Positions 3,301-63,500 of a stretch of DNA of 64,000 nucleotides are shown piece after piece. The stretch spans positions 8,415,001-8,479,000 of the forward strand of contig NC_079888.1 in assembly GCF_029227915.1 (NCBI RefSeq), read 5' to 3'. The translations under genes were made by a program, and so were the position numbers. Under the pieces are notes generated by a model, which saw only the letters and a list, made by a program, of their open reading frames with translations, made no database searches and had not been told where the DNA came from. Origin of the DNA: Hydractinia symbiolongicarpus (lineage: Eukaryota > Cnidaria > Hydrozoa > Anthoathecata > Hydractiniidae). The stretch's first letter is position 1. Each line of letters starts with the position of its first letter.

Positions 3301-5108
3301 TTTTATTTTAGGCCAACCTGACTTTCCCTCTGATCCACTTTTTGTTACTGGAAAAGCTTCCAAGTGAATTGACATCAGTTGCTTAATCATAGCTTTTTGT
3401 TCTTCAACATAAATTTCTTCCATATTTTTGTGAATAAATTTCGGCATGTTCTGAAAAATGAGTAGAACAAAAAATCAATATCTTTCTTCAATATCCAAGT
3501 ATTTCAGTTTTAATCATGAAATAAAAGTAGAATGTTTAGTCTTGAATTATAAACATCTGCAAATGTAAATACAGCTATAGTACATATAACAAACAAAAGG
3601 GTAACAGTATTAAAGATACAAAGGATTCACATAACGATTTAAAAGAGAGCTGTTTATATTTCAAAATTTAGTTCAAATTTGTTATGCCCTGGTAAATGCA
3701 GATACACTTATTTTTGTGAATAAATTTCAACATGAGTTTTAAAATATGAAAAAATATTAAATAAAATATCTCTCCCCCATCCAAGCATTTTAAATTTGAG
3801 TCACAATGTAAAAGTAGAATATTTAGCCTTGACTTGTTTTAGAAACATCTGAGAATGCAATCAAAACTGTCAAATTAAGGGAAAGAGAGTATACAGGCAT
3901 ACAATACGCTTACAAAATAATATTTAGAAGGTAAGAGGTTTTATTGCAAAAATTAGTTCTGATAATACAGATACACCTACTTGCTTTGATAATGTTGTCA
4001 GAATTTTTTGTCTTGAATGAAGCTCTCTTCTTATACAAGCTGCTTGTTCATCGGCTGTATCCAACTATTTAATACAAATAAAATAATAACAAGACAGTAC
4101 TTCCGTTCCGTTCCTTTCACCAGTTTTCTCACACGGAAAATGTGCAGGAAAAAGGGACGTGTAATTATCTACTTTATTATACATAAACCCGAAGCAGTGT
4201 ATCCTGGGTAGAAAAATTTAAAATACCTGACATGCATTAAACAAAATCTGATGCTCATATTTTCTAACACCGAGTACAGTTTGAAACATTTCGTATAATT
4301 GTTCTTTGGATAAAATTAATTCTGAAGCAGCAGTAGCAGCCAGTCGTGCAGGAGTCTTTTTTTGGTCCTCATCACCTCTATATATAGCATCAAATTTAGC
4401 CATCCAAGAGCTTAAAACTGTTTCTTTACTTAGTCCCTCAATATCTGGCAAACTCCTGACTCTTTTCTCAATGTTTGCTTTAAATATTTCACGAAAATCA
4501 TTGCTGGAGTAACCCCCTGAGTTAACCATTTTATGAACTCTGTCACAACATAAAAAGCTGTCATAGTATGATTGCACAGCATTACGAAATGCTTCATCAG
4601 CAATAATGTTTGTTTTGCCTTCTAAAAATGACATAAACCGGTCCTTTATTGACATCAGATTTTGTTTTGTAACTTTTGATTGTCTCCGTGCCATGTCTGT
4701 TGGTTGCTTCGCATTAAACGGGTATGCAATGCACCGTGAAACAAACACATATAACTGCAACCTCCGTTTGTGTTCTGTGTCTTCAGGGTATTCCCCATTC
4801 TGGTTGCTCTCTTGCAAGTTTTGTAAAGAAGAAAAACTATTACCAATTTCGTTATTCTTAGGGTTTCTTGCTCTTCCACCCATAACCATACGTGGTAATT
4901 TTGGTGATCCTGAGGATCCAATACTGACATTGTCAAGTGATGGGTTTTTTTGACCTTTAGAATTGCTGGAAATGCTTGAGTTGTACTCTGGTTTAAAGTT
5001 TGATGTAGCTACATTTTGCGTAGAGGAAGAAATTGATGCAGACCCAAGGTCTGGTGTATCCAAATTTGGAACATCTTCTTCATCTGATGAAGAATCTGAT
5101 TCAATCAT
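315..5108 (-). CDS. CADPS: CADPS/CAPS calcium-dependent secretion activator, N-terminal exons (continues beyond window start)
   Basis: CAPS primes dense-core and synaptic vesicles for calcium-triggered exocytosis at the plasma membrane. Six coding exons can be read on the minus strand: 4227-5108, 3981-4064, 3299-3450, 996-1089, 491-559 and 315-367, all with GT-AG borders and compatible phase, giving 444 codons plus two bases. The first exon codes a serine- and acid-rich leader, then the family block around [18 protein letters not shown] and the segments [38 protein letters not shown] and [16 protein letters not shown]. The second codes [19 protein letters not shown], the third [17 protein letters not shown]. 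The last three enter the C2-like region ([19 protein letters not shown], then [14 protein letters not shown]). PH and MUN regions must lie past position 1. The start ATG at 5108 follows a likely splice acceptor near 5134, so an untranslated upstream exon or trans-spliced leader is expected. Exon order and matches to vertebrate CAPS make the identification firm; exact borders are by eye. Confidence 0.93.
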
Positions 5109-7914
5109 ATTTTAATTCTAGTAGCTTTCACCCTAAAATGAAAGGAAGCACTTGATATGCTTATTCTTAGTTATTTATTTCAAATATTTAAAATTGTTTT
5201 ATATATAACATACTAGTCAATAAGCCCATGGAAAAATCCATTTAGGCAGAAAAACAATAGAAAAATATAGGTTGTTTTAGAAGTTTATACAAAAAACTTT
5301 TAGCAAAATTTATTTATCCATTGCCTTTGGCCATGAAACGCTGATTAAAAAAAATGTATGGGATCATGTATTTGTGACAAACAATTACAGAGATTTAAAG
5401 GGGCTTAAAGGTTTTTTTGGTGACGCCATTAACCCATTTAGGCAAGTTTCCTGAACCCTCGTTTGGAAAACTTACCTAATTTAGTCCTATGTTGTGCACA
5501 TATAATTTCAATAAATTCAAAATTTGTAACATTTATATAAAATAGAAAAGGACATTCATAGTGGGTATCCAGTCTTCTACTAGGAGTTTATATACATGTT
5601 AATTACATAAAATACGAGATCTCTTATACTTTTCGGAAACTGCCTTAGCCTGTTAGCTATTCAGACGAAAACCTCACTTGCTCCTTATCCCAGACAAAAA
5701 CGGAAATGAAAAACGAAAAGTTGTTATATAGGTAACTTTAACTTTAACTTATGGCTACAGCAAACCCCAGTCTAAAAAGTTATTATGAAGATTTTACAAT
5801 AAACAACTTTTGTCTCGCTTTTTCAAATTTCAAGTTACTTTATCATAAAGCCTTAATCCTTTATCCTTAATAGCCTCATAAATCTTAATAGCATCATCAA
5901 AAGAAAAGTTACTTTTACAATAAACAACTGTTGTTTCACTTTTCAAATTTCTATCCTTAACAAAAAAGAGAAAAGAAAGTTACTTAATAAGCTGTAGCTA
6001 CAATCTTCATCAATATGTTGAGATAAGACGATAATTTCGAAAGTTTTTCACCACAAGTAAATGCTTAGGCTATTTCTATATTAGATTTACCAATTTTGAA
6101 GTTGTCAAAGTTCATTTTTCAGCAGACTTAGACTTAGGATCTAAGGCTTTTTGATAAAGTACAAACTCCTAAAATGTGCTATTTGTTGCTGACATCACAT
6201 TGCCATTTTTCACAAAATTTGGGTCCTTTGTGGGCATGACGTGGGTTATTTCAGTTTGCAAAAATGCTAGAGAATGTGAATAATACCTTTCTAATGCTGT
6301 AACCTGTTTCAGAAACTAAGGGTTGATATGCATTATCTAAAACATTTAAATACCAATATTTCTTTAACTGTTTGTGCCACAGGCACATGATCCTATACAT
6401 TTCCTTGATCAGTGTTTCCAGTTCTACAGAGCCAACGATAAAAATATTTCTAAAAAAAAATTGTGATCATTGGCTCATTGCTAACATCATCAAAATATAA
6501 ATGACAGATCTTTGCCATTGTTCTTTAAGTGGATTTCTCCACAGGTTTATTGCATTGTTATTTATAGTTTTTATTTATTATGAATATATATTGTAGTTTT
6601 CTCTAGTAAGGAAGACAACCATTAAAAATTAAAAGATTTTTAAAAACTATTTTACTTTCTTGTTCTTATTTAAAATTTAGGGGGTAATTAAAACATAACT
6701 CGCATTTCACAAACAAAGGTAAATATTATGCTAAAATATTGAGAACAAGGTGTTATATAAAATAAGAATGTAATAAATATGTTACTAATAACCTTGACCA
6801 CAATCACATACTGTATTTTACTCTATTATTCCTGCCTCTCTAACATTCCTGCCTCTCTCTAGTAAATCTGCCTTGGCATGGGGTAAAAAAAATTAAAAAA
6901 TAAATACTGGCATGCATGATTTGATGTATAGTTCTATTATTTTTGTACTGTAGCTATCTACATTTTACGTGACGACAAAATATTGTTGGTATTTTGAAAA
7001 TAAATATTTGTCTCACCCTTCCAACGCACACATTTAAGATATACACAGGCAGAATATCATTAAATTATTACATTCTGATCTTGATTTTAGTAGCACTAAA
7101 TGCAGAAATGTAATTTTATACAAGTAAAATTTTTTTGTTCTGATGCATGATGTTTCTGGTGGCCTATTAAAATGAACATCCCCTTTATTACTCAGACTTG
7201 TTTTTAACCAGCTATTGTCTTCATGTTGGTATAATACTTTCAGAAAATTCTTTTATTTTTCTGTTAATATGTTAAACAAAAAATGTTTTTTCAAAATTTT
7301 AAATTCCTGTTTTGAAATTTTCTTGTAACATAATTTTGCCTTTAATATAACTCATTGGACACCTCTTAATTAGTCCAGTTTTTAGGACCAATCAAATTCC
7401 TTGTGACCAACCGGGGCCAGGGTCTTGTTCAGACCGTCCATATATAAAAGCCTAACAAGACCTGGGGACAAAGTTGGCTAGGAGGTAGATTTGAATATTA
7501 GGGATTCACTTTGACATTTCGTTGTGTCAAGCTTTTGTTTTAGACAAACTGGATTTAATATTATTAAAGGAAGCTTAGTTAACTAAGCTTTTTACATAGT
7601 GCACTTTCATCAACAACAAGAAGAAAAACATTTAATAGTCATATTAGATAAGGGTGTTTGACAAGCGTATTATGCCTTATTTTTCTATATTATTTTCTTA
7701 TACAGCTGACTAATAGCAATAGTGTTGTAGTATTACATTTTAGCTAGCATATTTTAATCATCATATATACATAAAAATCATACAAAGGAGGGTGTTATGA
7801 CAATAATGTTACTATGTAATTAAGATTTAGGCAGTTTTAAAAAAATAAATTTTGCACAAGCAATTTTGACCAATTTTGATCAATTAGAACCTGAAAACTA
7901 CATGTCCAACTTAG

Positions 7915-14464: not shown

Positions 14465-16579
14465 ATGTTAGAACGGCGAGAAGTTGTGAAAGGGTTTACA
14501 AAGATGGGAAGAGTAGAAAGGATGATAACAGGTTTTAAGTTAAACAAGCAGAAAAGTTTTTCTAGCTTCCAGCCCATCGGTAACATTTCTAAATATCTTA
14601 ATTTTCCAGTCACAGTTCAGTTGCAGTCACGAGGCAGTAAATTCTATGAAGTTGAAGGATTTAAGGGGATGTTTACACTGCAATATAAAGAACAACTGAC
14701 TCGATTGAAATGCATCGCTCGCGATGGCCGAGAGGTATATGTTACTGCGAATTCACCAAAGCCTGTTTTGTTCTTATCTATTGATAACACGAATATATTC
14801 AACAGCGTTGAAGAGTTAAGAGCTAACAAGAAGGAGAACAATATTTTATGGTTCGTATCGACGAAAGATTTCCGTGTAAATCACACTTCATTTTATAGAG
14901 GCCAGATATTCACATTTGCCGCTTCTACAATTTTAAATAGATCTTTTCGAAGGGAGCGACAACGAGGAATATATGTGGAACAATACCCTAGTATGAAGAG
15001 ATGTTTCCTTCCAATGACAGCTACAGGAGGGTTTAAAAAATGCGACCCACCCTCAGTTTGTCAAGAGTTTTCGATCAACGAGATTGCAAAAACAGATAAC
15101 CTGCCGTACTTTATAATTCAGGACACGACAAAATCCTTTCTACACGACACAGCAGAGTTGTGCAATGAACGTTTGTTCGTGGTGGAAAAAGAAACAACAG
15201 AATTTATTTTTGCTTCAAAGAAAGAAGATGGATGCTTAAAAATGTACGTTTTCTCCTCGTCTCTACCGCTTGAAGGAAAAGTTGTCCACGATTCGAAACC
15301 TGTTGACACACTTGATCATACTGAACTGAAAACGGTAACCAGTTCTTTTAATTTTCCATCTGATAAGGACACGCACAAACATTATTTTCAAGTTTATACT
15401 TACAAAGAATTAGGCATATCGCGTCTCCTTGAAGAAATATTTATCGAACTAAACCAAAAACTTAAAAGTATCAACAATCACGCGCCATCTTTGATAAGCC
15501 CTGTTGATTTTCAAAACAAATCAGAGAGTAATTCATGCATGCCGTCGGATTTTACGTACGAAACAATACCGCAAACTGTCCAACATCTTCCAAACCACAT
15601 TGGAAAACACAAAACAAAACTTCCGCAAACCGAAACGTCATCATCCTACCTGTCAAGTATTGACAACTTGTCAAAAGACGCTGACAACGTGCTCGTCAGC
15701 CAGAATACCCGTCATGTATATATAAATGAATGTTCACTAAGTGACATGATGCCTTCAAAGAATGATACCGAGAGAAAATTAGTCGTTCAATTTGATGACG
15801 GGGGTTATGTAGTGATACCATTCACTGGAAATTCTCCGCGCATAACTTTAGATCGGAAGAACGTTACTTATAAAAGCACAGACAATACCTGTTACGGGTA
15901 TAATTACGTAAAACCTAATCCAATCAGTTCTGAAGACCCTATATACTCTTACATTAGCATGGAAGCTCTGGATTTTGAATTAAAACGCTTAGACTGCAAA
16001 CAACATTTAATGAAACCGAAAGAAGAAGTTCGGTACAGTTTCAGCTATGACTACCCCCATATTGGACATTTTCGAATTCCACGTGATTTGAGCAAACTCC
16101 ATATCGTGAATCTTTGTGTGGAAGAAGTGAGTGATATTCTCAAGTTGAATTTAATGAAAACGCATGTTGATTTGTTTCAAAAAAATCTCATCGATGGTGA
16201 GAAATTATCGAAACTCACTGAACCTGAGCTAACAAAAATGGGGTTAACAAAATTTGAATCTCGTAAGTTAAGATGCTTTATTGATGGATGGAGGCCACTT
16301 AAAGATGGCTCTCATGACGACTTATGGCTTGGTAAAATGCCATGTGATTGGAGCGTGTTTGACCTCTCGCGCTACTTGCTCCACATAAACATGCGTTCAC
16401 TGCAACGATTCACAACACGAAACGACGTTGATGGTTTCTTGTTGAAAAAAATTTTAAAAGATGACGTCCTCGAGAGTTTAAAAGACGAACATGGTGTAGC
16501 TTTTCGTGATAAAGAATTGGACAGACTTAGAAAATACGTTGACGAGGATGACAAACCAAAATTTAAATATGTTCGATAG
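14465..16579 (+). CDS. GAREM-like adaptor with N-terminal CABIT-like region and two C-terminal SAM-like domains (704 aa, intronless)
   Basis: GAREM proteins are cytoplasmic adaptors that link receptor tyrosine kinases to ERK signalling through Grb2 and SHP2. This single open frame codes 704 residues. The N-terminal half (about 30-330) resembles a CABIT region only loosely; it is rich in basic and aromatic residues. The middle (about 340-530) is polar and probably disordered. Residues 539-611 are the strongest match: IPRDLSKLHIVNLCVEEVSD leads into a SAM fold ending FIDGWRP, closely like the end of vertebrate GAREM (INGWRP). There the protein stops, but here a second SAM-like segment follows (about 617-692, SVFDLSRYLLHINMRSLQRF to LDRLRKYV). 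Tyr419 lies in YINE, a Y-x-N motif of the kind bound by the Grb2 SH2 domain. The absence of introns beside intron-rich neighbours could reflect retrocopying or an ancestral state. The first ATG overlaps an upstream TGA; Met14 is an alternative start. Confidence 0.75.
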   Translation: MLERREVVKGFTKMGRVERMITGFKLNKQKSFSSFQPIGNISKYLNFPVTVQLQSRGSKFYEVEGFKGMFTLQYKEQLTRLKCIARDGREVYVTANSPKPVLFLSIDNTNIFNSVEELRANKKENNILWFVSTKDFRVNHTSFYRGQIFTFAASTILNRSFRRERQRGIYVEQYPSMKRCFLPMTATGGFKKCDPPSVCQEFSINEIAKTDNLPYFIIQDTTKSFLHDTAELCNERLFVVEKETTEFIFASKKEDGCLKMYVFSSSLPLEGKVVHDSKPVDTLDHTELKTVTSSFNFPSDKDTHKHYFQVYTYKELGISRLLEEIFIELNQKLKSINNHAPSLISPVDFQNKSESNSCMPSDFTYETIPQTVQHLPNHIGKHKTKLPQTETSSSYLSSIDNLSKDADNVLVSQNTRHVYINECSLSDMMPSKNDTERKLVVQFDDGGYVVIPFTGNSPRITLDRKNVTYKSTDNTCYGYNYVKPNPISSEDPIYSYISMEALDFELKRLDCKQHLMKPKEEVRYSFSYDYPHIGHFRIPRDLSKLHIVNLCVEEVSDILKLNLMKTHVDLFQKNLIDGEKLSKLTEPELTKMGLTKFESRKLRCFIDGWRPLKDGSHDDLWLGKMPCDWSVFDLSRYLLHINMRSLQRFTTRNDVDGFLLKKILKDDVLESLKDEHGVAFRDKELDRLRKYVDEDDKPKFKYVR

Positions 16580-51757: not shown

Positions 51758-53282
51758 TAAACTATCATGTTCAAGAAATGATAAACTTTCCACAGTAAAA
51801 TTTTTGTATTGTTTGTACATTTTTTCTGACTATTCATACCCCCTTCACCGTTTGGGATTGACAGTATCATGCATTGCGGTTGGTTCTAATCAACCTTGTT
51901 CCCAGGGCTCTTTTTCTCTTTCTGACAAGGTTGGATTCCAATGTCTGTACATTTCATCTTGTTCTTTTTTGTATCATTGACATTTTACTTTCTGAAAATT
52001 TTCGAACACTTGTTTCACGATGTTTCATCTAGTTCTTTTTTTAACACGTGGTGAAGTGAAGATAAGAAGTCCAAAGGCTTGAACATTTCCGCCAGTAGAA
52101 ATCCATATAGCTACACGTTCTTTAAGCAAAATTATTTCAGACTTACAAGGTTTTTGTTTGGCATAGAGCTGTTTAGCTCTAATGTTTCTCCAACACAGTA
52201 GTGACATCGTAAATCCTATCGAAAATCTTAGGATCATGTTCGTTACGTTCATATCAACTTATTGCACGCACGAAAATAAGATATACACCATAGTGTTGCT
52301 ATATATCTTCAGAGACTTAATTTTTCACGGAAATTAATCTTCGCGAATTTCTGTCAATTTCGTTTAAAAAAGTAATACCCTGCATAATACACCACCGCAA
52401 CACAATTCATCGTAAATCTTTTAAAAGGATACTAAAATTATGGCATCCCGAAAGGTGGTTAAAGTTAAAGAGTCATTGTGCAAACTCCTATCATCAAACA
52501 CAATCTGAATGCAGCACTGTCTGGGCGTGTGCAGGGGTAAATGTATGTGAATAATCGGGATTTTGAAAAGCGTATTTTCAAAACACACTTTTCGCTAAAA
52601 ATTGTACGTACTAGGAAATCTATAGTTAGCGCTAGCACTTAAAGTCAGCAAGGACATCAGTGCAGCAAAAGCATACTTTCCTCACTGTTATCAATTTGGC
52701 TAGCCATAGTATAAAAAACACCACAGTTTTTATTTAACGAATCTCGGTAATCAAGCAACAAATATATAATTTTCTTTCATTGGACTTCATTGAGTAAATG
52801 ACTAGCTAGCTAGTCAAGGTCTTGCAAATTTCGTTCACGTACAAAGAGACGTTCTGAATAACAGAGAAACGTAATAAATACAAAAAAAATGTTCTGGCTA
52901 CTAAAATAAAGTGTCTATATCCTGGGGATGGGAAGTGCATTTTCATTGGTTTAGATATTCACAGACTTCGTGTGGTCTATCCCTACCTGAGCGCGATTCT
53001 ACAGATTCCGCATCTGCGGGCGGAAAAAAAAATCTGCTAACATTTAAAACAACAAAAAGAGGTCTTCAAAACATGTCAGCGTGTCAAAACTGTAAAAATT
53101 TATGATTGATTTTTCATAATAAATCAGTACTCGTGATTGGTTTACTACGCGAACAACAGAGTCGGTTAAAATAACGCATTTATTTGTAGCTTTAAGACTT
53201 CGTGCGTGGTTTGCACGACCCGCTTTTGGCCGACAGACAAAATAGCGTCTTTAGTGATTCTGTAACATAACGTTTTTTTTGC

Positions 53283-53339
53283 GGACAGACAGACAGACAG
53301 ACAGACAGACAGGCAGAATACCACTATTATTAATATAGA
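53283..53339 (-). mobile_element. Fragment of a Helitron-like element, minus strand, with GACA array
   Basis: On the minus strand the sequence reads TCTATATTAATAATAGTGG, then GTATTCTGCC and a run of CTGT units, the same order (TCTATATTA start, then a CTGT/CCGT array) as the element at 48439. The 3' hairpin end was not found. Confidence 0.35.
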
Positions 53340-53579
53340 CTAATCAGTTACCGGCCGACATATCTGCGGTTCGCCCGTCTTTTATATACTGCATTTCGTG
53401 TGTATCACTACTGTGATACCATTTTGCACAGACAGATGACTGCTATATTATAGAGGTAAAGGTGGGTATAGAGAAGAGATTGAGGAAGTGAAAGTCAGAT
53501 GTTTCATGCAACAACTTTGTGAAAAACCCATGCTAAAATCTGCACAGTTCCGATGTGTATTGCTTTTTAAGAGACATCC

Positions 53580-53614
53580 TTTGGTCACATGAAGATGCGC
53601 TTCATGTGACCAAA
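53580..53614. repeat. Perfect 15-bp hairpin
   Basis: TTTGGTCACATGAAG and its exact reverse complement enclose the loop ATGCG. No function assigned. Confidence 0.65.
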
Positions 53615-53881
53615 GAGGAAAAACATGGACAATTTTCACCACAACAAATTTTCAACAAAATTTGAAAACATACAATAACGTGCAAAATGCTATGTGCAAA
53701 ACTAGGTAACATATTATTTCATCGAACCTCATCTGTCCTCATTATGGCCCTAAGTAGGTGTATTCTACCTTAACGCCGCCCTTTACTTTCATTATTTTTC
53801 AAAAAATGCACGGTTAAACTCCCTCAGAGTAACATCTTACGACCGCCTATTTAACACCGCCACATAAAAATTAAAAACGGC

Positions 53882-53887
53882 AACAAG
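53882..53887 (+). repeat. Left 6-bp target-site duplication (AACAAG)
   Basis: AACAAG abuts the left terminal inverted repeat; the same six bases in the same orientation abut the right end at 60414-60419. Confidence 0.85.
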
Positions 53888-54135
53888 TATGGAGTCATGT
53901 ACTGGACAAAAGTCACGCTATAGAGTGTCGTGTTGCGTAGTAGAGTGTCGAGGTGCAATATAGATCCCAAGGTCGCGAGGCGTAGTATAGGTGGACGCGA
54001 GGCGAAATAGAGAGTCGCGAGGCGTAATAGTGAGACGCGTATGTAATAATAGAGAGATGCGAGGCGTAATAGAAGGACGCGATGCGTAACAGAAGGACGC
54101 GTTGCGTGATGGAAAGACGCGCAAACAAGGGCGAC
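53888..54135 (+). repeat. Left terminal inverted repeat with subterminal 20-bp repeats
   Basis: After the conserved terminus, units of the form GCGAGGCGTAATAGNNNGAC recur about eight times with drift (for example GATGCGTAACAG, GTTGCGTGATGG), becoming less regular inward. Compared with the right end this arm carries an extra unit near 54001 and has more diverged inner units. Open frames read through it are artefacts. Confidence 0.85.
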
Positions 54136-55077
54136 GCGGCGTGTAGGAAGAGGGGACGCGTACTTTCGCGCCATTTGCCTTGGTTACCCGTGAATAAATT
54201 TCGAATTTTTTCAATTGACTGGCAAATTAATCAAGACAAAACACGAAAGAAAAAGTAAGTTTTTGTAGCAGCTGGGCTGACCGTTCTCTCTGATTTTTTC
54301 TCTCCTGTTTTTTTAATTTCTGCTGTATTATAGTTATATTCTGATAAATTGTGAGAAGTTGCTAATTCATAAGTATGTGTAGTAGTGAAGGGAAGCAATG
54401 TAGGGCAACGACGACATTTGTCAACACAGGTATAGCTGGCACCCCCCCCCCCCCTCCTCATATATATTTTCTCATTAAAATTTGTAATGGGCTAGCTATA
54501 CTATTGCTATAAATAATGGATTATATTATTTGCCCTAGCAACTTTTACTTCCTTTTTTCCTTCCCTTGTATACACCACCAATCAACCCCCCTCCCCCTGC
54601 AACGAGGAGGGTGCCGATAAGCCGAAAAATGTTATTACACTGCTTGCATGCTATTCTGTTATAAGCAATGTGCTGTTTTTGTATTAATATTGTGTTTTGT
54701 ATCACCATGTGATTACAATGTTTTGATAGGTAAACAGGGCAGCTTATAAAACAGAACGTAGGACTACGACTGGTAGTTAAATGGAACTGTGCGGTGCATA
54801 TGCATGTGTACAACAACACTGTCAACAGGTGTATTGTAATGATGGCAAATTTCTCAAGTTTTGGTTTTCTTCAAGTGACACTGCACCCATTTTCAAGAAT
54901 TTTAAATAATGCAGCAAATATGTACAATGTTCTTATTCGATTTTCCTTTAAGGATATTCTTAAGACATTTTTAAATTTTTGTCTTACTATCGTGAATATT
55001 TATCGGCATGGTTGTAATTTTCAAAACTTTCAAGCTAAATTGTATGTGATGTTTTAGGAATTAAAAATTGATTCAGC
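54136..55077 (+). other. Transposon region upstream of the HECT gene
   Basis: No coding exon was recognised. It holds a run of 14 C bases (54441-54454) and ends with a splice acceptor (GTTTTAG at 55051-55057) 20 bases before the HECT start codon, so it must contain an untranslated exon, or the mRNA is trans-spliced. The promoter is probably near the inverted repeat. Confidence 0.45.
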
Positions 55078-57440
55078 ATGCAGAAAGTGAAAGACGCTAT
55101 AGACAGACTGAATAATGCATTGGATGGTCTGTCATCATCAACAACAAGTACTCAAAATAATCCAAATCAGAACATCTTCCAGAGTCCAAACTCACATCCA
55201 AGTCCAAACTTACATCCAAGTCCACAACATCAGAGAATTCTACAAGATTTCAAGTAGGTTGATATTTTTAAGAGTTGTGAATTTCTGCTCCCAGCATGAT
55301 CATTGCCTCCTTTGTATCTTTTCGATAAGTTTCAATAATCATCTCTCCAGGAGTACTGCTCACAGGCATTATGCTGATTGTGACTATTGAATTTTTTCGT
55401 GCCTTTGTACCTTTTTATAACATTTTTCATTTTTTTGATTTTGTTCAACTTTAATTTTTTTCTGTATACACTGAGTAGAAAGATTATTATGTTTGAGACA
55501 GATTTTTATTTTAATTCTTGTTCTGTTTCAGTAAGCAATTTCCAGCGTTGAATGCTGGTGGTAGCCGATATCGCCCACAAGCAAAGAAACCACGTCTCTC
55601 TAATAACTTCATTAAGGACACATGGACCCATAAATTCTGTGCACTGAGCTACAAAGATACATCAGTTTCACCTAATACACGTGAATTAATGGAGCTAAAC
55701 CAAGTTGGTCTCGGAATTGAAAAAGTTGTTTTTCCTTCCAAAACTGGAACACATGCTATGCTTCTGGAAGAGTTAACAAAAGCTTATCCAAAATTATCAT
55801 CACAGAGTGGTGGCATTGAACTTCTGAGGGCTGAGAGTGGTGGAATAAACCGACCATTGGTGTTGATACCACCAAGAAAAGATGGTTATTCTATCAGCTA
55901 TTTAAAAAATTTAGTACCCGGTCACGCTGTAATATACATCAGACCAGTGCAGAGCGACTTACCAATGGAGGAACCAACTATGGATTCAGGTATTGAAGTT
56001 AACTGTGTACGATGTAATCAGAAATATCCGTTAAATGATTTAAGATTCCATCAAGCTTATTGTCAACTTGATGATGACATTTTTCCAGAGATGATAGACG
56101 ATGAAGCTGGGCCATCGAATGAAAAAGAAGTAGGAAGTACTTCTCCCCATATCGATACTTTGTCGGCAATGTTTCCTCGAATCTCTAAAGCCACAATTCA
56201 GGACATTTTACGGAATACCAAATCTATCGATGTGGCAGCCAATATTTTGAGTGAGAAAAGTGCAAGTGAAAATATGTCTGACATGCTGCAAATTAAATGT
56301 GTAGATAAGGACATGTCTTTAAAAGAAATTCTCAATCAAATTACATCTCTTGCTTCAGAAAATGATACAATCACTTTGGAAATTGAACGTGACAATCTTT
56401 GGATGGAATCCTTGAGATTTTACAAAAGGAACCTTGTGAATTCTCAAGTTATGACCAAAAAATTGATCATTGAGTTTAAAGGAGAGGACGGCCTTGATGG
56501 TGGGGCAATGAAAACCGAATATTTCAACCTTTTGTTAGAAGAAGTTAAAAATCGTCTATTTGAAGGTGAAAATAACAGTTTGTTGCCTGTGAAAGACATC
56601 ACAAAAGCTGTGCTTTTCAAAGTTGCTGGTATGATTATCGTACATTCATTGATTGCTGGTGTTGACACCGGCTTCCCAGTATTAGCAAAACCATACTTTT
56701 TACACATGTGTGGTAGAGATACCGACAGTTTGATTGAAAGTTTGAATAAAAGCCACATACCAGCAAATGCAACAACTGAAAATTTGATTGAATTGATTGA
56801 ATCACTTGATCAATGTAAAACAAAGGACGATATAGACAAACTGCTTTACAAGGACAATCAGAAGCAAGATGTGTTTTGGTCACTTATTAATTCTGCGCAT
56901 TGGCCTGCCGACAAGAATATTAACAAAGAAAATGTCCCATTACTGGTTCAACAACTCATTTTGAATGATGTGATATTGTCACGCCGAAACTCTTCAGACA
57001 TGTTATTCGAAGGTTTGAGCTCGTGCAATTTCTTGAATACGATTCGGTGTCATTGGAAAGTTATGGATCAAATATTTTGTGCTGGTTATCGCATGATTGA
57101 GAGTAAAGAATTTATCAAATGTTTTAGTTTTGACGAACCAACTTCCTTCGTGGAGACACAGGCAAAGAAATTTTTTCTGTCGTTTATTGAAAAAAGTGAC
57201 AGTATGACATTGAGTAAAGTACTTGCCTTCTGTACTAGTCATACAGTTGTTCCACTGGATGGTATGAAAAATGAAATCAGAGTGAAATACATGTCGGATG
57301 ATGAAAAAAACAGTATGTGCAAATCCTCTGCATGTTTAAAAATAATCTACCTACCTACAGTTCATTCTGTAGAAAAGGCGTTTCACAATATGTTGGCAAC
57401 AGCTTTAGCATGTGAATCAAAGGGATTCGCAAATCCATGA
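55078..57440 (+). CDS. Transposon-encoded HECT E3 ubiquitin ligase with UBZ-like zinc finger and CUE domain (694 aa, two exons)
   Basis: Exons 55078-55253 and 55532-57440 join in phase (AA|T, Asn59), giving 694 residues. The N-terminus is polar with a repeated HPSPN-type motif. Residues 217-236 hold C-x2-C-x11-H-x3-C, the spacing of a Rad18-type UBZ ubiquitin-binding finger. Residues about 265-301 look like a CUE domain (LSAMFP, then ATIQDILRN and AANIL). From about 350 to the end is a HECT domain: EFKGEDGLDGGAMKTEYFNL matches the N-lobe start, and the C-lobe ends with SSACLKIIYLPTVHS, where Cys660 is the likely catalytic thioester cysteine. The architecture resembles G2E3-like HECT proteins that are expanded in fish and invertebrates. 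Such ligases take ubiquitin from an E2 onto cysteine and pass it to substrates; the role in transposition is unknown. The frame is uninterrupted, arguing for selection. Confidence 0.85.
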
Positions 57441-58154
57441 TAATTGTAAATTTTTAGGGGCACTAACGAGTTTATTTTTTTCCTTCAAGGTGATCGATTT
57501 TTAGCTTATGTTGTCATTGTTCTTATTATGTTGTCATTGAGAAAAAATGCCGATTTTTTTTCTTTTTCTTCCAAAATATGCCTCACTTCTATAAAACTGA
57601 TTTTTTTTCTGGTGGGGGGGAATATAAAAATCCTGTCAGTCCTATGCAAGAATTCTTCCAGTGATATACATACTTTTAATGATCAGATTGATTATGATTA
57701 GTCTCGAATTTATGACTGACTTGTACGCTCCTTGAAGTCTATATATACTGCACATGCATTTATAAGTTCGTCTTTTTGTTGTTCTATTTTGTTTGTTTTC
57801 TAACTTTTATATGGAAAAGATGTATGGTTATAGTCGTGATCAAGTTACGCATTGCATTATCATTCAGCTGTGCTAACCAAGAAGATATTTTTCTTTTCTT
57901 TTTATTTCACAAGGGTTATGTTTGTTATTTTGTTCTTTATGTGAAAAAATGTTCTACTTATATACGGTCGACTCACTCAGAGAAAGTTATTTAAAAACAG
58001 AACTGTTATCGTTAAGTAACTTTTAAACATATTTCGAACATTTTGGAGGGAATTTCGTCTGGCATTTTTAGGATTTATTGTATGATTAAACAAACAAGTG
58101 GTTTTGTTGACATTTCGTGTACTTATGCAGTACTTTTATTTTTCAGAATATAAC
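57441..58154 (+). other. Spacer between the HECT and integrase genes
   Basis: AT-rich sequence without a recognised exon or a clear AATAAA signal for the HECT gene. It ends in a pyrimidine-rich tract and acceptor (TTATTTTTCAG, ending 58146) nine bases before the integrase start codon. Confidence 0.5.
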
Positions 58155-59597
58155 ATGAATATACAACAATTGAGTCCAGTTGATTTTATTAAGAATTCTG
58201 TTGTTGATACATTGAAACTAATCCAGTCGTTATTGTCATCCTTTGTTGACGCGAATACAGCAGATTTGGATTATCCTGTCTATAGACTTGATGAACTTTA
58301 CAGCTTCTGCTCTAGAGCAGCTTTAGAGTATCCAGATGTTATAACCGAAAATGTACTGAGTAGTATTCATCAAGCATCAGTGATAATTCAATCAGTGAAC
58401 AAAACTAGTAACGCGGAAACTGTACGGCACAAGATAGGCAGGCCTTCTTTCGATATACCTGAGGAAACTCTAAAAACTTTAGTGAGGTTGAATTTTTCGC
58501 AGACGGCAATAGCTGAAATGTTCGGAGTAAGTGCAAAAACTATTCAAAGAAGATTTAAAGAGTTTGATATTGAACCTAAATCGCACACTATGATTGGTGA
58601 CGAGGAACTTGATGAACATGTCAAAAAAATTATTTCAGATTTTCCTAACTGTGGCATACGTAGAATGAAAGGTTTTTTACTGTCTCATGGTTATCACATT
58701 CCTTGGAAAGTTGTTCGTGATAGTATGTGGCGGGTTGATCCATCAGGGCTATTGATGCGCTCGTTGCAACGTAATGTAGTTCGAAGAAGAAAATATAGTG
58801 TTGCAGCGCCAAGGTCATTGTGGCATATAGACGGCAATCACAAATTGATAAGATGGTCGATAGTCATTCATGGCGGCATAGATGGGTATTCTAGGCGTCT
58901 AATGTTTCTGTCGTGCGGATCAAGTAACAAGGCTACTGTAGTACTCGATTTATTTCTGACCGCAGTACAAAATTTTGGCTTGCCGTCGCGTGTAAGAGGA
59001 GATCATGGGGTGGAAAATGTAGACGTTGCTTGGTTTATGATATCAAGACGAGGAAGTAATCGTGGTAGCTTTATCGCTGGGAAAAGTTGCCATAACCAAA
59101 GGATAGAGAGGTTCTGGAGAGATCTATTCCACGGCTGCACATACATATACCACAACATATTCACTTACTTGGAAGAGATAGGAGCCTTGGATATATCGAA
59201 TGAGTTGCATTTGTTTTGCCTTCATTATGTTTTTATTCCAAGAATAAATGCACATTTTCAAAGATTTATCCTGGGCTATGATCACCATCCTATCCGAACA
59301 GAGAGAAACCTTTCTCCTCTTCAATTATGGGAAAGAGGTTTGTTGTTGCAAAGGAGACCGTCAGAAGATGATATTGTCGATGACTGCGATTCATATGGTA
59401 TAGATTGGAGTGTACCGAGTCATTATATCGAAACCCGTGACGATGCTATTGTGGTTCCCGAGATAAATCATCCATTTCAAAGTAATGACTTATACCTGGA
59501 ATTTTGTAGATCTAACGATCCAATGGCAAATTGCGATAACTTCGGTATCGAAGTGTTTCTTCGAACTGTTCAGGTCGTAGAAAGTACATTGTTATGA
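58155..59597 (+). CDS. Integrase-like DDE transposase with helix-turn-helix (480 aa)
   Basis: This is the presumed recombinase that cuts and joins the ends of the element. The ATG at 58155 is preferred over an upstream in-frame ATG at 58098 because a strong splice acceptor lies between them. Residues about 114-140 form a helix-turn-helix ([20 protein letters not shown]) after a GRPSFDIP hinge, then a segment like the IS3/integrase HTH_21 region ([19 protein letters not shown]). The integrase core begins at WHIDGNHKL: Asp226, Asp283 (RGDHGVENV) and Glu318 ([11 protein letters not shown]) make a DDE triad, with Asp283 and Glu318 35 positions apart as in retroviral-type integrases. The last 110 residues are a conserved-looking tail without a known fold. 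No reverse transcriptase, gag or protease is present, so this is a DNA transposon and not a retroelement. All three catalytic residues and the full frame are intact. Confidence 0.88.
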
Positions 59598-59731
59598 ACA
59601 CCACTATTAGTTCACTCACAGAACTTTTGATTGAATTGCTTAACTTGACATTAGTTACATTAGATACATTACAAAGAAGAAATTCAAACATTTTGTTCAC
59701 TATATACGTACTAGATATTATGCTTAGGTAA

Positions 59732-59737
59732 AATAAA
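59732..59737 (+). terminator. Polyadenylation signal of the integrase gene
   Basis: AATAAA 135 bases after the integrase stop codon, inside the element. Confidence 0.5.
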
Positions 59738-60105
59738 GCTCCTTCAGTTCTTCTAACCACGCGAAAAAATAGCCACAGCAGTAGTCATTTAATAAGTTCT
59801 TCCCGTGCCTAATTATAGAGCGCGCTCTTTTTTGTTTCCCCGTCCCAACGTCGAAAAGTTGTATTATGCCCTGATCGAGGTTGTTATTCTGCTTATCATA
59901 ACTCCCCTCTAATAGGCATATAATATACACGAGAGGTTATGATGAACTAGTAGCCCTTGTACACCAAGTATGGAATCTTTTTTTTTCATTTTTTCCTTTT
60001 AAAGTATTCATGACAAGAAAAAAGTGAAGATGTATGTAAGCGTAGTTCTTTCTCTGACACGGATCCTCCCATCACACATCTTATTACGCTCCGACTTTAC
60101 ACGTA

Positions 60106-60413
60106 TTTCTATTACGCCTCGCGTCCTTCTATTACGCCTCGCGTCTCTCTATTACGCCTCGCGTCTCTCTATTACGCCTCGCGTCCTTCTATTACGCCTC
60201 GCGTCTCTCTATTACGCCTTGCGTCTCTCTATTACGCCTCGCGTCCTTCTATTACGCCTCGCGTCTCTCTATTATTACATACGCGTCTCACTATTACGCC
60301 TCGCGTCCACCTATACTACGCCTCGCGACCTTGGGATCTATATTGAACCTCGACACTCTACTACGCAACACGACACTCTATAGCGTGACTTTTGTCCAGT
60401 ACATGACTCCATA
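60106..60413 (-). repeat. Right terminal inverted repeat with subterminal 20-bp array
   Basis: Eight consecutive 20-bp units (ATTACGCCTCGCGTCYYTCT) are followed by two degenerate ones and the conserved terminus ending GACTCCATA. The units here are much more uniform than at the left end, which suggests recent array turnover. Arrays of this kind are common transposase-binding regions. Confidence 0.88.
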
Positions 60414-60419
60414 AACAAG
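60414..60419 (+). repeat. Right 6-bp target-site duplication (AACAAG)
   Basis: Same six bases as at 53882-53887, directly outside the right terminus. Confidence 0.85.
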
Positions 60420-60532
60420 AAACAGCATGGAGGCATAGGATTAAGATTATCAGTGGTCATACGTGCGAAAGTACAAAAATAGCTGCGATATAAAAATAAA
60501 CCAGCACGACTAAAATGAAATTCAACCTGGCA

Positions 60533-63500
60533 TTAAACTTGTACAGCGTGTTGTTGTTTAAACGCTTCGCATGCAAACTGACATTTACATTTCGATGTAC
60601 AGACCGGCTGTACGTACGGTAACCGAAATTTTTTCCACGCCTCGTCTAGTCCTTCGACCAAACGATCCATCATTTCTTCTGTGTGGAACGGTGTAGGCGC
60701 AACACGAAGTTTTTCATCTCCGACAGCTACAGTGGGGTAGTTGATCGATTGAATGTAAATTCCATGTTCGTTTTGCAAATGATGAGACACACTGGTACAC
60801 TTCTCCGCGTTGCCCGCCGTCTAAGGTGGAGAACATAATACACATTAAACAATGTACTTTAATGGGTAGAATATGTAATTAATATCACGTGACTTACCAG
60901 GATTGGTACAATATGACTTGGAGCGTACTCAACCGGAAAGCCACGTTGAACAAGCTTTGTTCTTAACTGCTTGACATTCGCCTGATGTTGTTTTCGCAGT
61001 GCTTGGCCTTCTTCACCACGGAGAATGTTGATTGAAGTCACAGCCGCGTATGCCTTGTCTGGCGGAAGAGCGGTAGTGAAGATAAAGCCAGAGCCGTAAC
61101 TGAAAAATTTAAAATGAGAAAAATCAGAAATTATTCATTTAATAAGTGAGTAATATTATTATACAAAGCTAGTTTTACTTTGGTTTATATGACGAATGTT
61201 TTACAAGGATCAGCATTTTAGATAAGTCTGCATGGCTTCTAGTAACAACGTAAAAATGCATACCAACCTTCGCAGAGTGTCAATAAGTGACGCGCTTCCC
61301 ACCAAATATCCACCAACACAGCCGACAGCCTTTCCCAGAGTACCACTAATGATGTCCATTTTATGCAAGCAGTTGTCACGTTCGCCAATGCCAGCACCAT
61401 GGCGACCATACAAACCAACAGCATGCACCTATTTATAAAAGCATGTATTCGGTGAAAACCATGCTGAGTAACAATGGCAGGACACGTGGCATTAAAAAAT
61501 AGAAACATATGGACTCTTTTAAAAATCGTGAATACAACTCCCTTTTCCTTCTAACCCTTCAGATCGAAGTTTGATAATTGAGTTGAACTTTTATTAGCGA
61601 GTGCATGCTTTTTATGGATGCAAAATGACTAGAGGAACATATACTGATCATATAATTGATGATCCTGTTACATTTTGTACATCATCATATCCACCCCGTT
61701 TCCAAAACTATCCACTCCTAAGAGTCTATTCAAAGAATTGAAGAACAACAAGACTAAGAACAACAAGACTAAGATCAACAAAAATATTTTTGTTGAGAAA
61801 AAAGAGTAAGTATATGATGAGTTGGTAATAAAATTACCTCGTCTATGAAGGTAAGTGCACCATACTTATGAGCTATGTCACATAAAACTTCCAGTGGACA
61901 CACTGCCCCAGACATTGAATGCACTGTTTCAAATGCAACAATTTTGGGTACGTTAGGATCAGCTTTCATTAACACCTCTTCAAGATGTTGCGGGTCGTTA
62001 TGACGAAATACGACTTTGTTCGCTCCGCTCGTTCGCACACCTGTCACGTAGAAAATATTTAATTAATTTTAACAACAGCAACAACAAAAACAACAACAAA
62101 ACAACAATAATAACAACAATAATAACAATATATAAAATAATTACCATGTATCATAGAAGCATGGTTTCCAGCATCAGAAAAAATAATACAGCCAGGTAGT
62201 TTCGAGCCTAACGTATACAATGCCGTATCGTTGGCAACAAAACAGGATGTGAAAAGAAGACCAGCCTCCTTTTCATGCCACTGCGCAAGCGTCTCTTCGA
62301 GCAAGCCATGGTAATAACTAGTGCCTGATATGTTGCGTGTGCCACCAGCACCTACACCGTTTTCCTCGATGATCGATCTAAATAAACATGATATACATAA
62401 GCAATAGTTTGGGTAAGAAAGGATCTAATTAAAAAAATTACCTGAATTTCCGTAGTTTAAGGGGAAGAACTTTTGCGGGAAGAAAATTTCGCGTAAAAAA
62501 AACTTTCTTCCTTTAAAATACTTCTTTTATTTACATCTATTTGTTTTATTTGCATTTCCACCCATCTTACATCAAGCGTGTACGCCACGAAAGGTTGATG
62601 ACGCAACAAGGGCATGATGCAAGCCTATTATAAAATCCAAATATAAAACAACATACTTTGCAGCCTCGACCACAGACGGATGCCGGCTCATTCCAAGGTA
62701 ATCATTGCTGCACCACACCGTGATGTCCCGTGGAATGTTCGAGAAGGAAAAGTCTTCAGCCATGGGGAAGCTTTGCGCCTTGCGATTAACTTTACGAAAC
62801 ACTCTGTAGCTGTGATCATCTTTCTTCTTCTGAATCATGTTTTCGAAAAAAGAATCATAATTAAACGGCTTTTTCTCGTTGTCTAGGTAGAAAATAAACT
62901 ATGAGCAGAAGGTTACAGTGACAGTGGGTAATGAATGTTTGCATAAGGAGGATTGTACCCTTAGGGAAAAAATTCGCGAGCTTTAATTTCGTGATTTAAA
63001 ATATTAACATTCAGTAAGGCTCCAAGATGTAAATAAATATAGCATTAAATATCTGCCATTTTTATTAAAGTATAAATTTTATACGTTGCTATGCAACCTT
63101 ATTCAAAACGACTATTAGACAAAGACTGACCATCGCTTCTTTTTTTTTCAGTTTGATTAGCTTTTTCAGCTGAATGCTCCGCACTTTGTTTGGCAGCCGT
63201 ATGAATAGCTTTGTTGACAACTTTTGATAACATCTGCATTACACTTCCTGAGCTGAAAGGACATGTTCCTGAAACAAGAAGAAAACCTTAAAACTTAGTT
63301 TACACAATGTATGAAACATTTAGCAATTTAAAACAGAGTGTTAATTACACTAAAACTTTCATCGTCATCCCAAGCCTTTCGAATTTACGTCAGCACTCGA
63401 AAATTGCATACGTGTTAACAAAAATTTTTAATTTACGTTGGCAAAAAATTTTTTGATATGTTTTTTTGAATGTAACCAGGGCTTGCACAACTTTTATTCT

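What the first reader, a model, noticed from the sequence alone, without database searches (positions are those of the whole stretch)
53882..60419. Intact DNA transposon pairing a DDE integrase with a HECT ubiquitin ligase
The sequence shows matching terminal inverted repeats, a perfect 6-bp target duplication and two uninterrupted genes between them. The pairing of an integrase-type transposase with a zinc finger-CUE-HECT E3 ligase in one mobile unit is unusual: it suggests an element that manipulates host ubiquitination, for example to control transposase stability, evade silencing or act on repair at the donor site. Similar HECT and integrase genes are known as scattered annotations in fish and invertebrates; whether they have been recognised as one element is not known to me.
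Basis: partly seen in the sequence, partly recalled or inferred. Interest (0 to 1): 0.92.

Follow-up and report, generated by a model that had tools for sequence, protein, structure and literature searches.

The report
Jumping gene with own ubiquitin ligase
In the genome of a small marine animal there is a recently active mobile DNA element that carries, beside the enzyme that moves it, a gene for an enzyme that tags proteins with ubiquitin, and diverged relatives in the same genome carry the same pair, so the tagging enzyme is probably part of how these elements live rather than an accidental passenger.

Summary
Window 53888-60413 (6526 bp) is a complete DNA transposon flanked by AACAAG, in Hydractinia symbiolongicarpus. 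It encodes an rva_4 DDE integrase and a C2HC-CUE-HECT protein. The genome holds at least 20 left ends at 99-100% identity. All 17 two-ended copies analysed have perfect 6-bp (14) or 7-bp (3) duplications and, indels aside, at most 6 mismatches to the window copy. Eight keep both genes, five only the integrase, four neither, none HECT alone. The pairing is not accidental: two other families with their own TATGG ends and 6-bp duplications hold both genes in other arrangements, and 16 of 26 further HECT-homologue loci have an integrase within 2 kb. Ends and duplications fit IS3EU (PMC10045372, passages). HECT is not universal: 44 of 64 further integrase loci show none within 5 kb. Function is inferred: most likely a transposon-encoded E3 that serves the element. 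My searches found no report of HECT in such elements; Repbase could not be consulted. New variant of a known kind.

The parts
53882..53887 (.). target-site duplication AACAAG, left copy
   Evidence: read directly; identical to 60414-60419; 17 of 17 two-ended copies analysed have perfect 6- or 7-bp duplications
53888..54121 (+). left terminal inverted repeat (234 bp, 87% to the right end), starting TATGGAGTCATGTACTGGACAAAA; its inner part holds about 20-bp subterminal repeats
   Evidence: inverted match of element 1-234 with 6293-6526; subterminal repeats
55078..55253 (+). predicted first exon of the HECT gene (MQKVKDAIDRLNNALDG...)
   Evidence: three GT-AG joins keep the frame open; CAA|GTAGGT...GTTTCAG|TAA is the one with good consensus sites by my judgement; no transcript seen
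55532..57440 (+). HECT E3 ligase gene, main exon: N-terminal conserved region, C2HC zinc finger (C163 C166 H178 C182 of the 640-aa ORF), CUE, HECT with catalytic Cys codon at 57333
   Evidence: PF00632 5.6e-14, PF02845 1e-5, both above cut-off; ligands and Cys; model matches solved HECT domains, best E 1.4e-13
58125..59597 (+). integrase-type DDE transposase gene (490 aa), N-terminal HTH-like stretch and rva_4 integrase core; codons of the triad start at 58830 (D), 59001 (D), 59106 (E)
   Evidence: PF24764 2.9e-78; HTH matches below cut-off; D 19 of 19, D 19 of 19, E 18 of 19 in alignment A2
60107..60413 (-). right end: about 20-bp subterminal repeats (60107-60332) and right terminal inverted repeat (60180-60413) ending CCATA
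   Evidence: the array is 60 bp shorter in L020 and 40 bp longer in L023 and L024
60414..60419 (.). target-site duplication AACAAG, right copy

Best explanation
An autonomous cut-and-paste DNA transposon of the IS3EU/GingerRoot type with two genes: an integrase-like DDE transposase that cuts at the TATGG...CCATA ends and inserts with mostly 6-bp target duplications, and a HECT ubiquitin ligase that recurs in several diverged families of these elements. Shown: the element structure, recent mobility, both open genes with conserved catalytic residues, recurrence of the pair. Inferred: the pair is old, the HECT protein is made, works as an E3, and helps the element in trans. The mechanism I think most likely is that the E3 is brought to the transposase-bound element and ubiquitylates the transpososome or host proteins bound there, so that the product complex is taken apart and handed to repair, or local silencing or repair factors are removed. 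Split of confidence: identity as an IS3EU-like element with a recurrent HECT gene about 0.95; the E3 serving the element at all about 0.65; the specific recruitment model about 0.3.
For: Copies and duplications; two more families with own ends and duplications holding both genes (L059; L061); 16 of 26 HECT-homologue loci outside the window family with an integrase within 2 kb, 10 convergent and 6 integrase-then-HECT; the best non-self HECT homologue P0122 (42%) and the integrase homologue P0003 (51%) both list a longest contig of 10225 bases, so probably lie on one contig of another organism; catalytic Cys in 15 of 16 sequences that reach that column, zinc ligands in 25, 25, 25 and 24 of 25; the Cys motif also reads in families B and E; in family E both proteins begin with a SAM-like domain (HECT E 1e-4, at cut-off; integrase 0.0037, below cut-off), a hint that they meet; precedent: Ginger1 transposons carry OTU or Ulp1 proteases, and their authors proposed that the ubiquitin pathway takes part in transposition (PMC2836005, passages).
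Against: HECT is dispensable in cis: 5 of 17 two-ended copies keep only the integrase and 4 keep neither intact. 44 of 64 integrase loci outside the window family show no HECT within 5 kb (detection is limited, one search scored 89 of 619 candidates), and 0 of 3 sponge integrase contigs show one (contigs of 3.4-4.2 kb). The SAM pair is seen in family E only. No transcript, protein or activity data. dN/dS within family B was inconclusive (HECT 0.35-1.7, 14 to 20 changes per pair).
Confidence: 0.55

Rival explanations
1. The HECT ligase counters host control away from the element: it marks host silencing or restriction proteins for degradation, much as transposon-borne TET/JBP genes in fungi are thought to counter methylation.
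For: Fungal IS3EU elements carry TET/JBP and alpha-kinase genes, the former thought to help escape methylation-based silencing (PMC12730594, passages). Loss of HECT from single copies while others keep it fits a factor supplied in trans.
Against: No target known; nothing was tested here on silencing in Hydractinia. The SAM pair of family E points rather to contact with the transposase.
Confidence: 0.25
2. The HECT ligase limits the element itself by turning over the transposase (self-regulation that keeps copy number low).
For: Copy number is modest: 20 left ends at 99-100% identity found (a lower bound). The SAM pair in family E would allow contact.
Against: Copies should gain by losing a self-limiting gene, yet 8 of 17 two-ended copies still hold both genes and the pair recurs across families.
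Confidence: 0.15
3. The HECT gene is a passenger captured once, with no part in transposition or defence, present only because copies are young.
For: Integrase-only copies exist (5 of 17) and many integrase loci lack a detected HECT (44 of 64).
Against: Related HECT proteins stand beside the integrase in families whose aligned HECT pieces share only about 23-40% and integrases about 37-46% identity with the window's (one 26-residue integrase piece 65%), and probably in another organism at 42 and 51%; a useless gene would not stay open that long (inference).
Confidence: 0.1
4. The pairing is accidental: an integrase element inserted beside a host HECT gene, or two elements side by side.
For: Hydractinia has many other HECT stretches (83 merged loci outside the window family from the Pfam scan).
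Against: Both genes lie inside the same pair of ends in 8 independent insertions of the window family and in two further families.
Confidence: 0.01

Closest known systems
[quoted passage not shown]
   Same: TA..TA termini of the TAYGG..CCRTA form, 6-bp target duplications, DDE integrase-like transposase without an HHCC finger (features as given in PMC10045372 and PMC12730594, passages; element features)
   Different: Carries a HECT E3 ligase; the word HECT occurs 0 times in the main text of either paper. Relation to named Repbase families not tested.
Fungal IS3EU elements with alpha-kinase and TET/JBP genes
   Same: An IS3EU-type transposase accompanied by accessory enzyme genes; transposase and alpha-kinase lie in opposite orientations there, as integrase and HECT do in families B and D here (PMC12730594, passages)
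   Different: Accessory enzymes are a kinase and a dioxygenase, not a ubiquitin ligase; fungi, not an animal
Ginger1 transposons with OTU or Ulp1 protease domains
   Same: Integrase-type transposons that encode a ubiquitin or SUMO pathway enzyme (PMC2836005, passages)
   Different: There the enzyme hydrolyses ubiquitin or SUMO links and is a C-terminal domain of the transposase; here it would attach ubiquitin and is a separate gene. Different ends and duplications.
Fish proteins named HECT domain-containing protein or G2/M phase-specific E3 ubiquitin-protein ligase
   Same: Related by sequence: P0141-P0146 directly (E 2e-20 to 2e-7); P0147-P0149, one of them named G2/M phase-specific E3, only through a profile that already held P0141-P0146
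   Different: Whether those fish genes sit in transposons was not tested; no genome context was available

Membership tests
IS3EU/GingerRoot | TA..TA termini (TAYGG..CCRTA) | tested here: met
   window family TATGG...CCATA; family B TATGGGG; family E TATGGAA
IS3EU/GingerRoot | usually 6-bp target-site duplications | tested here: met
   14 of 17 two-ended copies 6 bp, 3 of 17 7 bp (L017, L021, L025); 6 bp in the one copy each of families B and E examined
IS3EU/GingerRoot | integrase-like DDE core without an upstream HHCC zinc finger | tested here: met
   PF24764 rva_4 and below-cut-off HTH matches, no integrase zinc-binding family listed at E up to 1; D-D-E conserved
IS3EU/GingerRoot | transposase groups phylogenetically with Repbase IS3EU proteins | not testable with these tools
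   Repbase sequences are not held; no tree was made
Ginger1 | Gypsy-like ends, CCGG targets, YPYY motif, zinc finger and GPY/F motif | tested here: not met
   ends TATGG and varied targets, no such finger in the Pfam scan; definition from the abstract passage of PMC2836005; YPYY and GPY/F were not searched for
HECT E3 ligases | HECT domain with catalytic Cys near the C-terminus | tested here: met
   PF00632 above cut-off; Cys606 of 640; model's best matches are solved HECT domains; sequence match to SMURF2 4.1e-6
HECT E3 ligases | thioester formation and ubiquitin transfer | not testable with these tools
   needs biochemistry

The most novel reading that the evidence does not exclude
A long-lived lineage of animal IS3EU-type transposons has its own HECT ubiquitin ligase as a functional partner of the transposase, physically coupled to it in some families through matching SAM domains, so that the element itself directs ubiquitylation at its transposition complex.
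Probability: 0.3. Interest if true: 0.82.

Novelty: new variant of a known kind. Interest (0 to 1): 0.63.

Why it matters
Transposons were proposed in 2010 to use the ubiquitin pathway because some carry enzymes that remove ubiquitin or SUMO (PMC2836005, passages). An element that carries the opposite enzyme, a ligase, as a separate and recurrent gene, in eight near-identical two-ended, two-gene copies in one animal genome, makes that proposal testable. It also raises the question whether some HECT genes annotated in fish and cnidarians are transposon genes rather than host genes (not tested here).

Tried and rejected
Accidental neighbourhood: rejected, because both genes lie within the same ends at 8 independent insertions and in two further families.

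Relatives in other collections: no relatives in viral contigs for HECT or integrase nor for the exact 24-base end; three sponge contigs in a symbiont record hold integrase pieces but no HECT in 3.4-4.2 kb.

Selection within family B: HECT dN/dS 0.35-1.7 on 14 to 20 changes per pair is inconclusive; the integrase half of that script was read out of frame and is discarded.

Integrase model: mean pLDDT 71; the top solved matches are IstA and retroviral intasomes but none reaches E 0.001; by sequence no solved structure matches well (best E 0.047). It only agrees with the Pfam result. No Rfam family at gathering score in 53000-61500.

Not achieved: a genome-wide scan with the integrase family PF24764 (16 requests, never answered) and with alpha-kinase PF02816 (not completed). 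Not tried: an empty-site search, a tree of the integrases, reading the neighbours of the 44 integrase loci without a detected HECT.

Literature: listings; passages only of PMC10045372, PMC12730594, PMC2836005, PMC9926710 and PMC8195603 (116, not relevant). Of 35 papers with IS3EU 20 were listed and two opened; of 41 15 were listed and none opened; of 4 two were opened. No paper seen describes a HECT gene in an IS3EU element. The GingerRoot paper was not held (its DOI was recalled), and Repbase was not available.
Full report
What is there. The finding's coordinates are exact. AACAAG stands at 53882-53887 and 60414-60419; between them lies 6526 bp that begins TATGGAGTCATGTACTGGAC and ends with its reverse complement. 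The terminal 234 bp at each side are inverted repeats at 87% identity, with arrays of about 20-bp subterminal repeats inside them. Two coding stretches lie on the + strand: 55518-57440 and 58098-59597. The first gives HECT (5.6e-14) and CUE (1e-5) in Pfam, both above cut-off; the second gives the integrase core rva_4 (2.9e-78), with rve and HTH matches below cut-off. A join CAA|GTAGGT...TTTCAG|TAA would add an upstream exon (55078-55253) and make the HECT protein 694 aa; this is a prediction.

Host. The protein with 100% identity is named for Hydractinia symbiolongicarpus (LOC130635548) on a contig of 37015953 bases, which is the length of contig C3 of the window's genome. That model probably belongs to a HECT-less copy: its last residue (Ser) fits the T-to-C change at element position 5706 of copies L023 and L024 on C3.

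The element moves. A 219-base query (the 6-base duplication plus the terminus) matches 20 places at 99-100% identity; 62 matches in all, right ends and subterminal pieces included, with 40 of 64 candidates scored, so counts are lower bounds. I fetched 20 regions. Seventeen copies have both ends; 17 of 17 have a perfect direct duplication, 6 bp in 14 and 7 bp in 3 (L017, L021, L025). L023 and L024 share one duplication and are a duplicated locus, so these are 16 independent insertions. Apart from insertions and deletions, copies differ from the window copy at 0 to 6 positions (several sit at deletion joints and may be alignment effects). Such sameness means recent, perhaps present, activity (inference). 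Of the other three regions, two (L011, L012) cover a cluster on C10, whose two inverted copies have both ends but no matching duplication, and one (L026) a copy without a right end.

Do the genes travel together? Of the 17 two-ended copies, 8 keep both genes open (L009, L010, L015, L020, L021, L022, L025, L028; L028 lacks 21 bp in frame near the start of the integrase), 5 keep the integrase and have lost all or part of HECT (L017, L018, L019, L023, L024), 4 have lost both in whole or part (L013, L014, L016, L027), and none keeps HECT with the integrase lost. L026 keeps HECT but matches only to element position 4536 and has no right end. In the C10 cluster HECT is mostly gone and the integrase has a gap. 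Eight deletions checked have 1-4 bp of sequence shared at the joint, partly at chance level; the pattern fits broken gap repair after excision (inference). So HECT-less copies exist, but they are deletion products of the two-gene element; whether they moved after losing HECT is not known.

Is the pairing conserved beyond this family? Family B at C11:17041921-17047615 (5695 bp) has its own ends TATGGGGTTAGATAGCGGAC (30 of 30 bases matching) and CACCCC on both sides, with integrase and HECT facing each other. Family E on C4 (6050 bp within L061) has ends TATGGAACGCCAAGG and TCAACG on both sides, with integrase upstream of HECT on the same strand. The window family has HECT upstream of integrase. 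Thus three arrangements of the same pair. In the genome, the HECT search gave 26 merged loci outside the window family (69 of 104 candidates scored; window-family rows were dropped before the count); 16 of 26 have an integrase within 2 kb, where random placement would put one within 5 kb of 0.16% of loci. The loci are not independent families: five are copies of family B, 96-98% identical, six are by their identical or near-identical match values copies of family E (two of them compared, 99.4%), one is family D (L057), four are unassigned. At least four families are distinct (window, B, D, E); the ends of D were not determined. With the Pfam HECT hits added, which include host HECT genes, 20 of 97 loci have an integrase within 5 kb. 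The other way round, 20 of 64 integrase loci have a HECT within 5 kb and 44 do not; the integrase search scored only 89 of 619 candidates and diverged HECT genes can be missed, so both numbers are rough. In another organism, the HECT homologue P0122 (42%) and the integrase homologue P0003 (51%) both list a longest contig of exactly 10225 bases, very likely the same contig, which I could not open. Three sponge contigs with integrase pieces show no HECT, but are only 3.4-4.2 kb long.

Are the proteins likely to work? In 19 aligned integrases, the window's included, the triad is D 19 of 19, D 19 of 19, E 18 of 19, with 34 residues between the second D and the E here; 108 of the 120 listed homologues fit a simple triad pattern, spacing 34 in 15 and 36 in 93, and 12 fail at least one part of it. 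The HECT catalytic Cys is present in 15 of 16 sequences that reach the column (one has G), and the zinc ligands in 25, 25, 25 and 24 of 25. The AlphaFold2 model (mean pLDDT 79) finds solved HECT domains first, SMURF2 at 1.4e-13. The N-terminal region (about residues 33-150) aligns in most of these HECT proteins but matched no Pfam family. In family E both proteins start with a SAM-like domain, HECT at its cut-off (E 1e-4) and integrase below it (E 0.0037): SAM domains often pair with one another (established knowledge), so this suggests contact between the two proteins in that family.

How it most likely works. Shown: structure, movement, two conserved genes. From knowledge of DDE enzymes: the transposase cuts at the ends and joins them to staggered target positions, leaving the duplications. 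Inferred: the HECT protein acts in trans, since single copies can lose it. I think it most likely that it ubiquitylates proteins at the transposase-DNA complex, the transposase itself or bound host factors, easing disassembly and repair; a general attack on host silencing is the next best; control of transposase amount and a mere passenger are less likely. None of these was tested.

What is known. IS3EU elements have TA..TA ends and usually 6-bp duplications (PMC10045372, passages); TET-bearing fungal ones end TAYGG..CCRTA and also carry alpha-kinase genes (PMC12730594, passages). Ginger1 transposons carry OTU or Ulp1 domains and their authors proposed that the ubiquitin pathway takes part in transposition (PMC2836005, passages). 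The word HECT occurs in none of the three main texts. Searches for HECT with IS3EU, with transposase, integrase and terminal inverted repeats, and with Hydractinia and transposable elements returned no paper; with transposase and cnidarian four papers, two opened, none of these two on this. One of them, on Hydractinia, lists a HECT-domain gene and a likely KDZ transposase among genes of the sex locus without linking HECT to a transposon in the passages seen (PMC9926710).

Verdict. A real, intact and recently active IS3EU-type transposon whose HECT ligase is a recurrent component of several families. New variant of a known kind; the ligase as a separate, conserved transposon gene is the surprising part; its role is open.

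Noticed in passing
L060:2055-5417 and L061 (family E): Both the integrase and the HECT protein of family E begin with a SAM-like domain (scanned in L060), which suggests that the two proteins bind each other.
   Followed up: partly
L011 and L012 (G000 C10:7937900-7954829): Right ends spaced exactly 3744 bp apart in L012 suggest a tandem array of a deletion derivative, right ends lying against internal position 496 of the next unit; beside it a second, inverted copy is separated by 67 bp whose border sequences match the outer flanks only if the 67 bp are inverted, so probably two insertions followed by an inversion.
   Followed up: partly
L017, L021, L025: Three of 17 two-ended copies have 7-bp instead of 6-bp target duplications.
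   Followed up: no
G000 C9:26494705-26495503 (right of L028): The right end of copy L028 stops about 28 bp from an integrase stretch of another family (281-aa open frame), so one element appears to have landed beside or inside another.
   Followed up: no
G000, integrase loci with open frames of about 278 and about 398 aa: Multi-copy integrase families without a detected HECT neighbour in most listed copies; their second gene, if any, is unknown.
   Followed up: no
window 53888-54121 and 60107-60413: About 20-bp subterminal repeats in inverted orientation at the two ends, perhaps transposase binding sites; the right array differs in length between copies. Family E has a different subterminal repeat.
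   Followed up: partly
window 60533-60790, minus strand: The element lies about 120 bp past the stop of an aminotransferase class I/II gene end (PF00155) that looks to me like 5-aminolevulinate synthase (recalled).
   Followed up: partly
window 53580-53614: A 15-bp perfect inverted repeat with a 5-bp loop (TTTGGTCACATGAAG) left of the element, seen by eye.
   Followed up: no
window 14465-16579: 704-aa open frame with a SAM domain (PF00536 1.1e-6), otherwise unidentified.
   Followed up: no
L062, L063, L064: Contigs filed under a bacterial symbiont genome (Cycloclasticus of a sponge) hold integrase pieces of this eukaryotic type and, in L063, frames that look to me like a reverse transcriptase polyprotein; probably sponge contamination.
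   Followed up: partly
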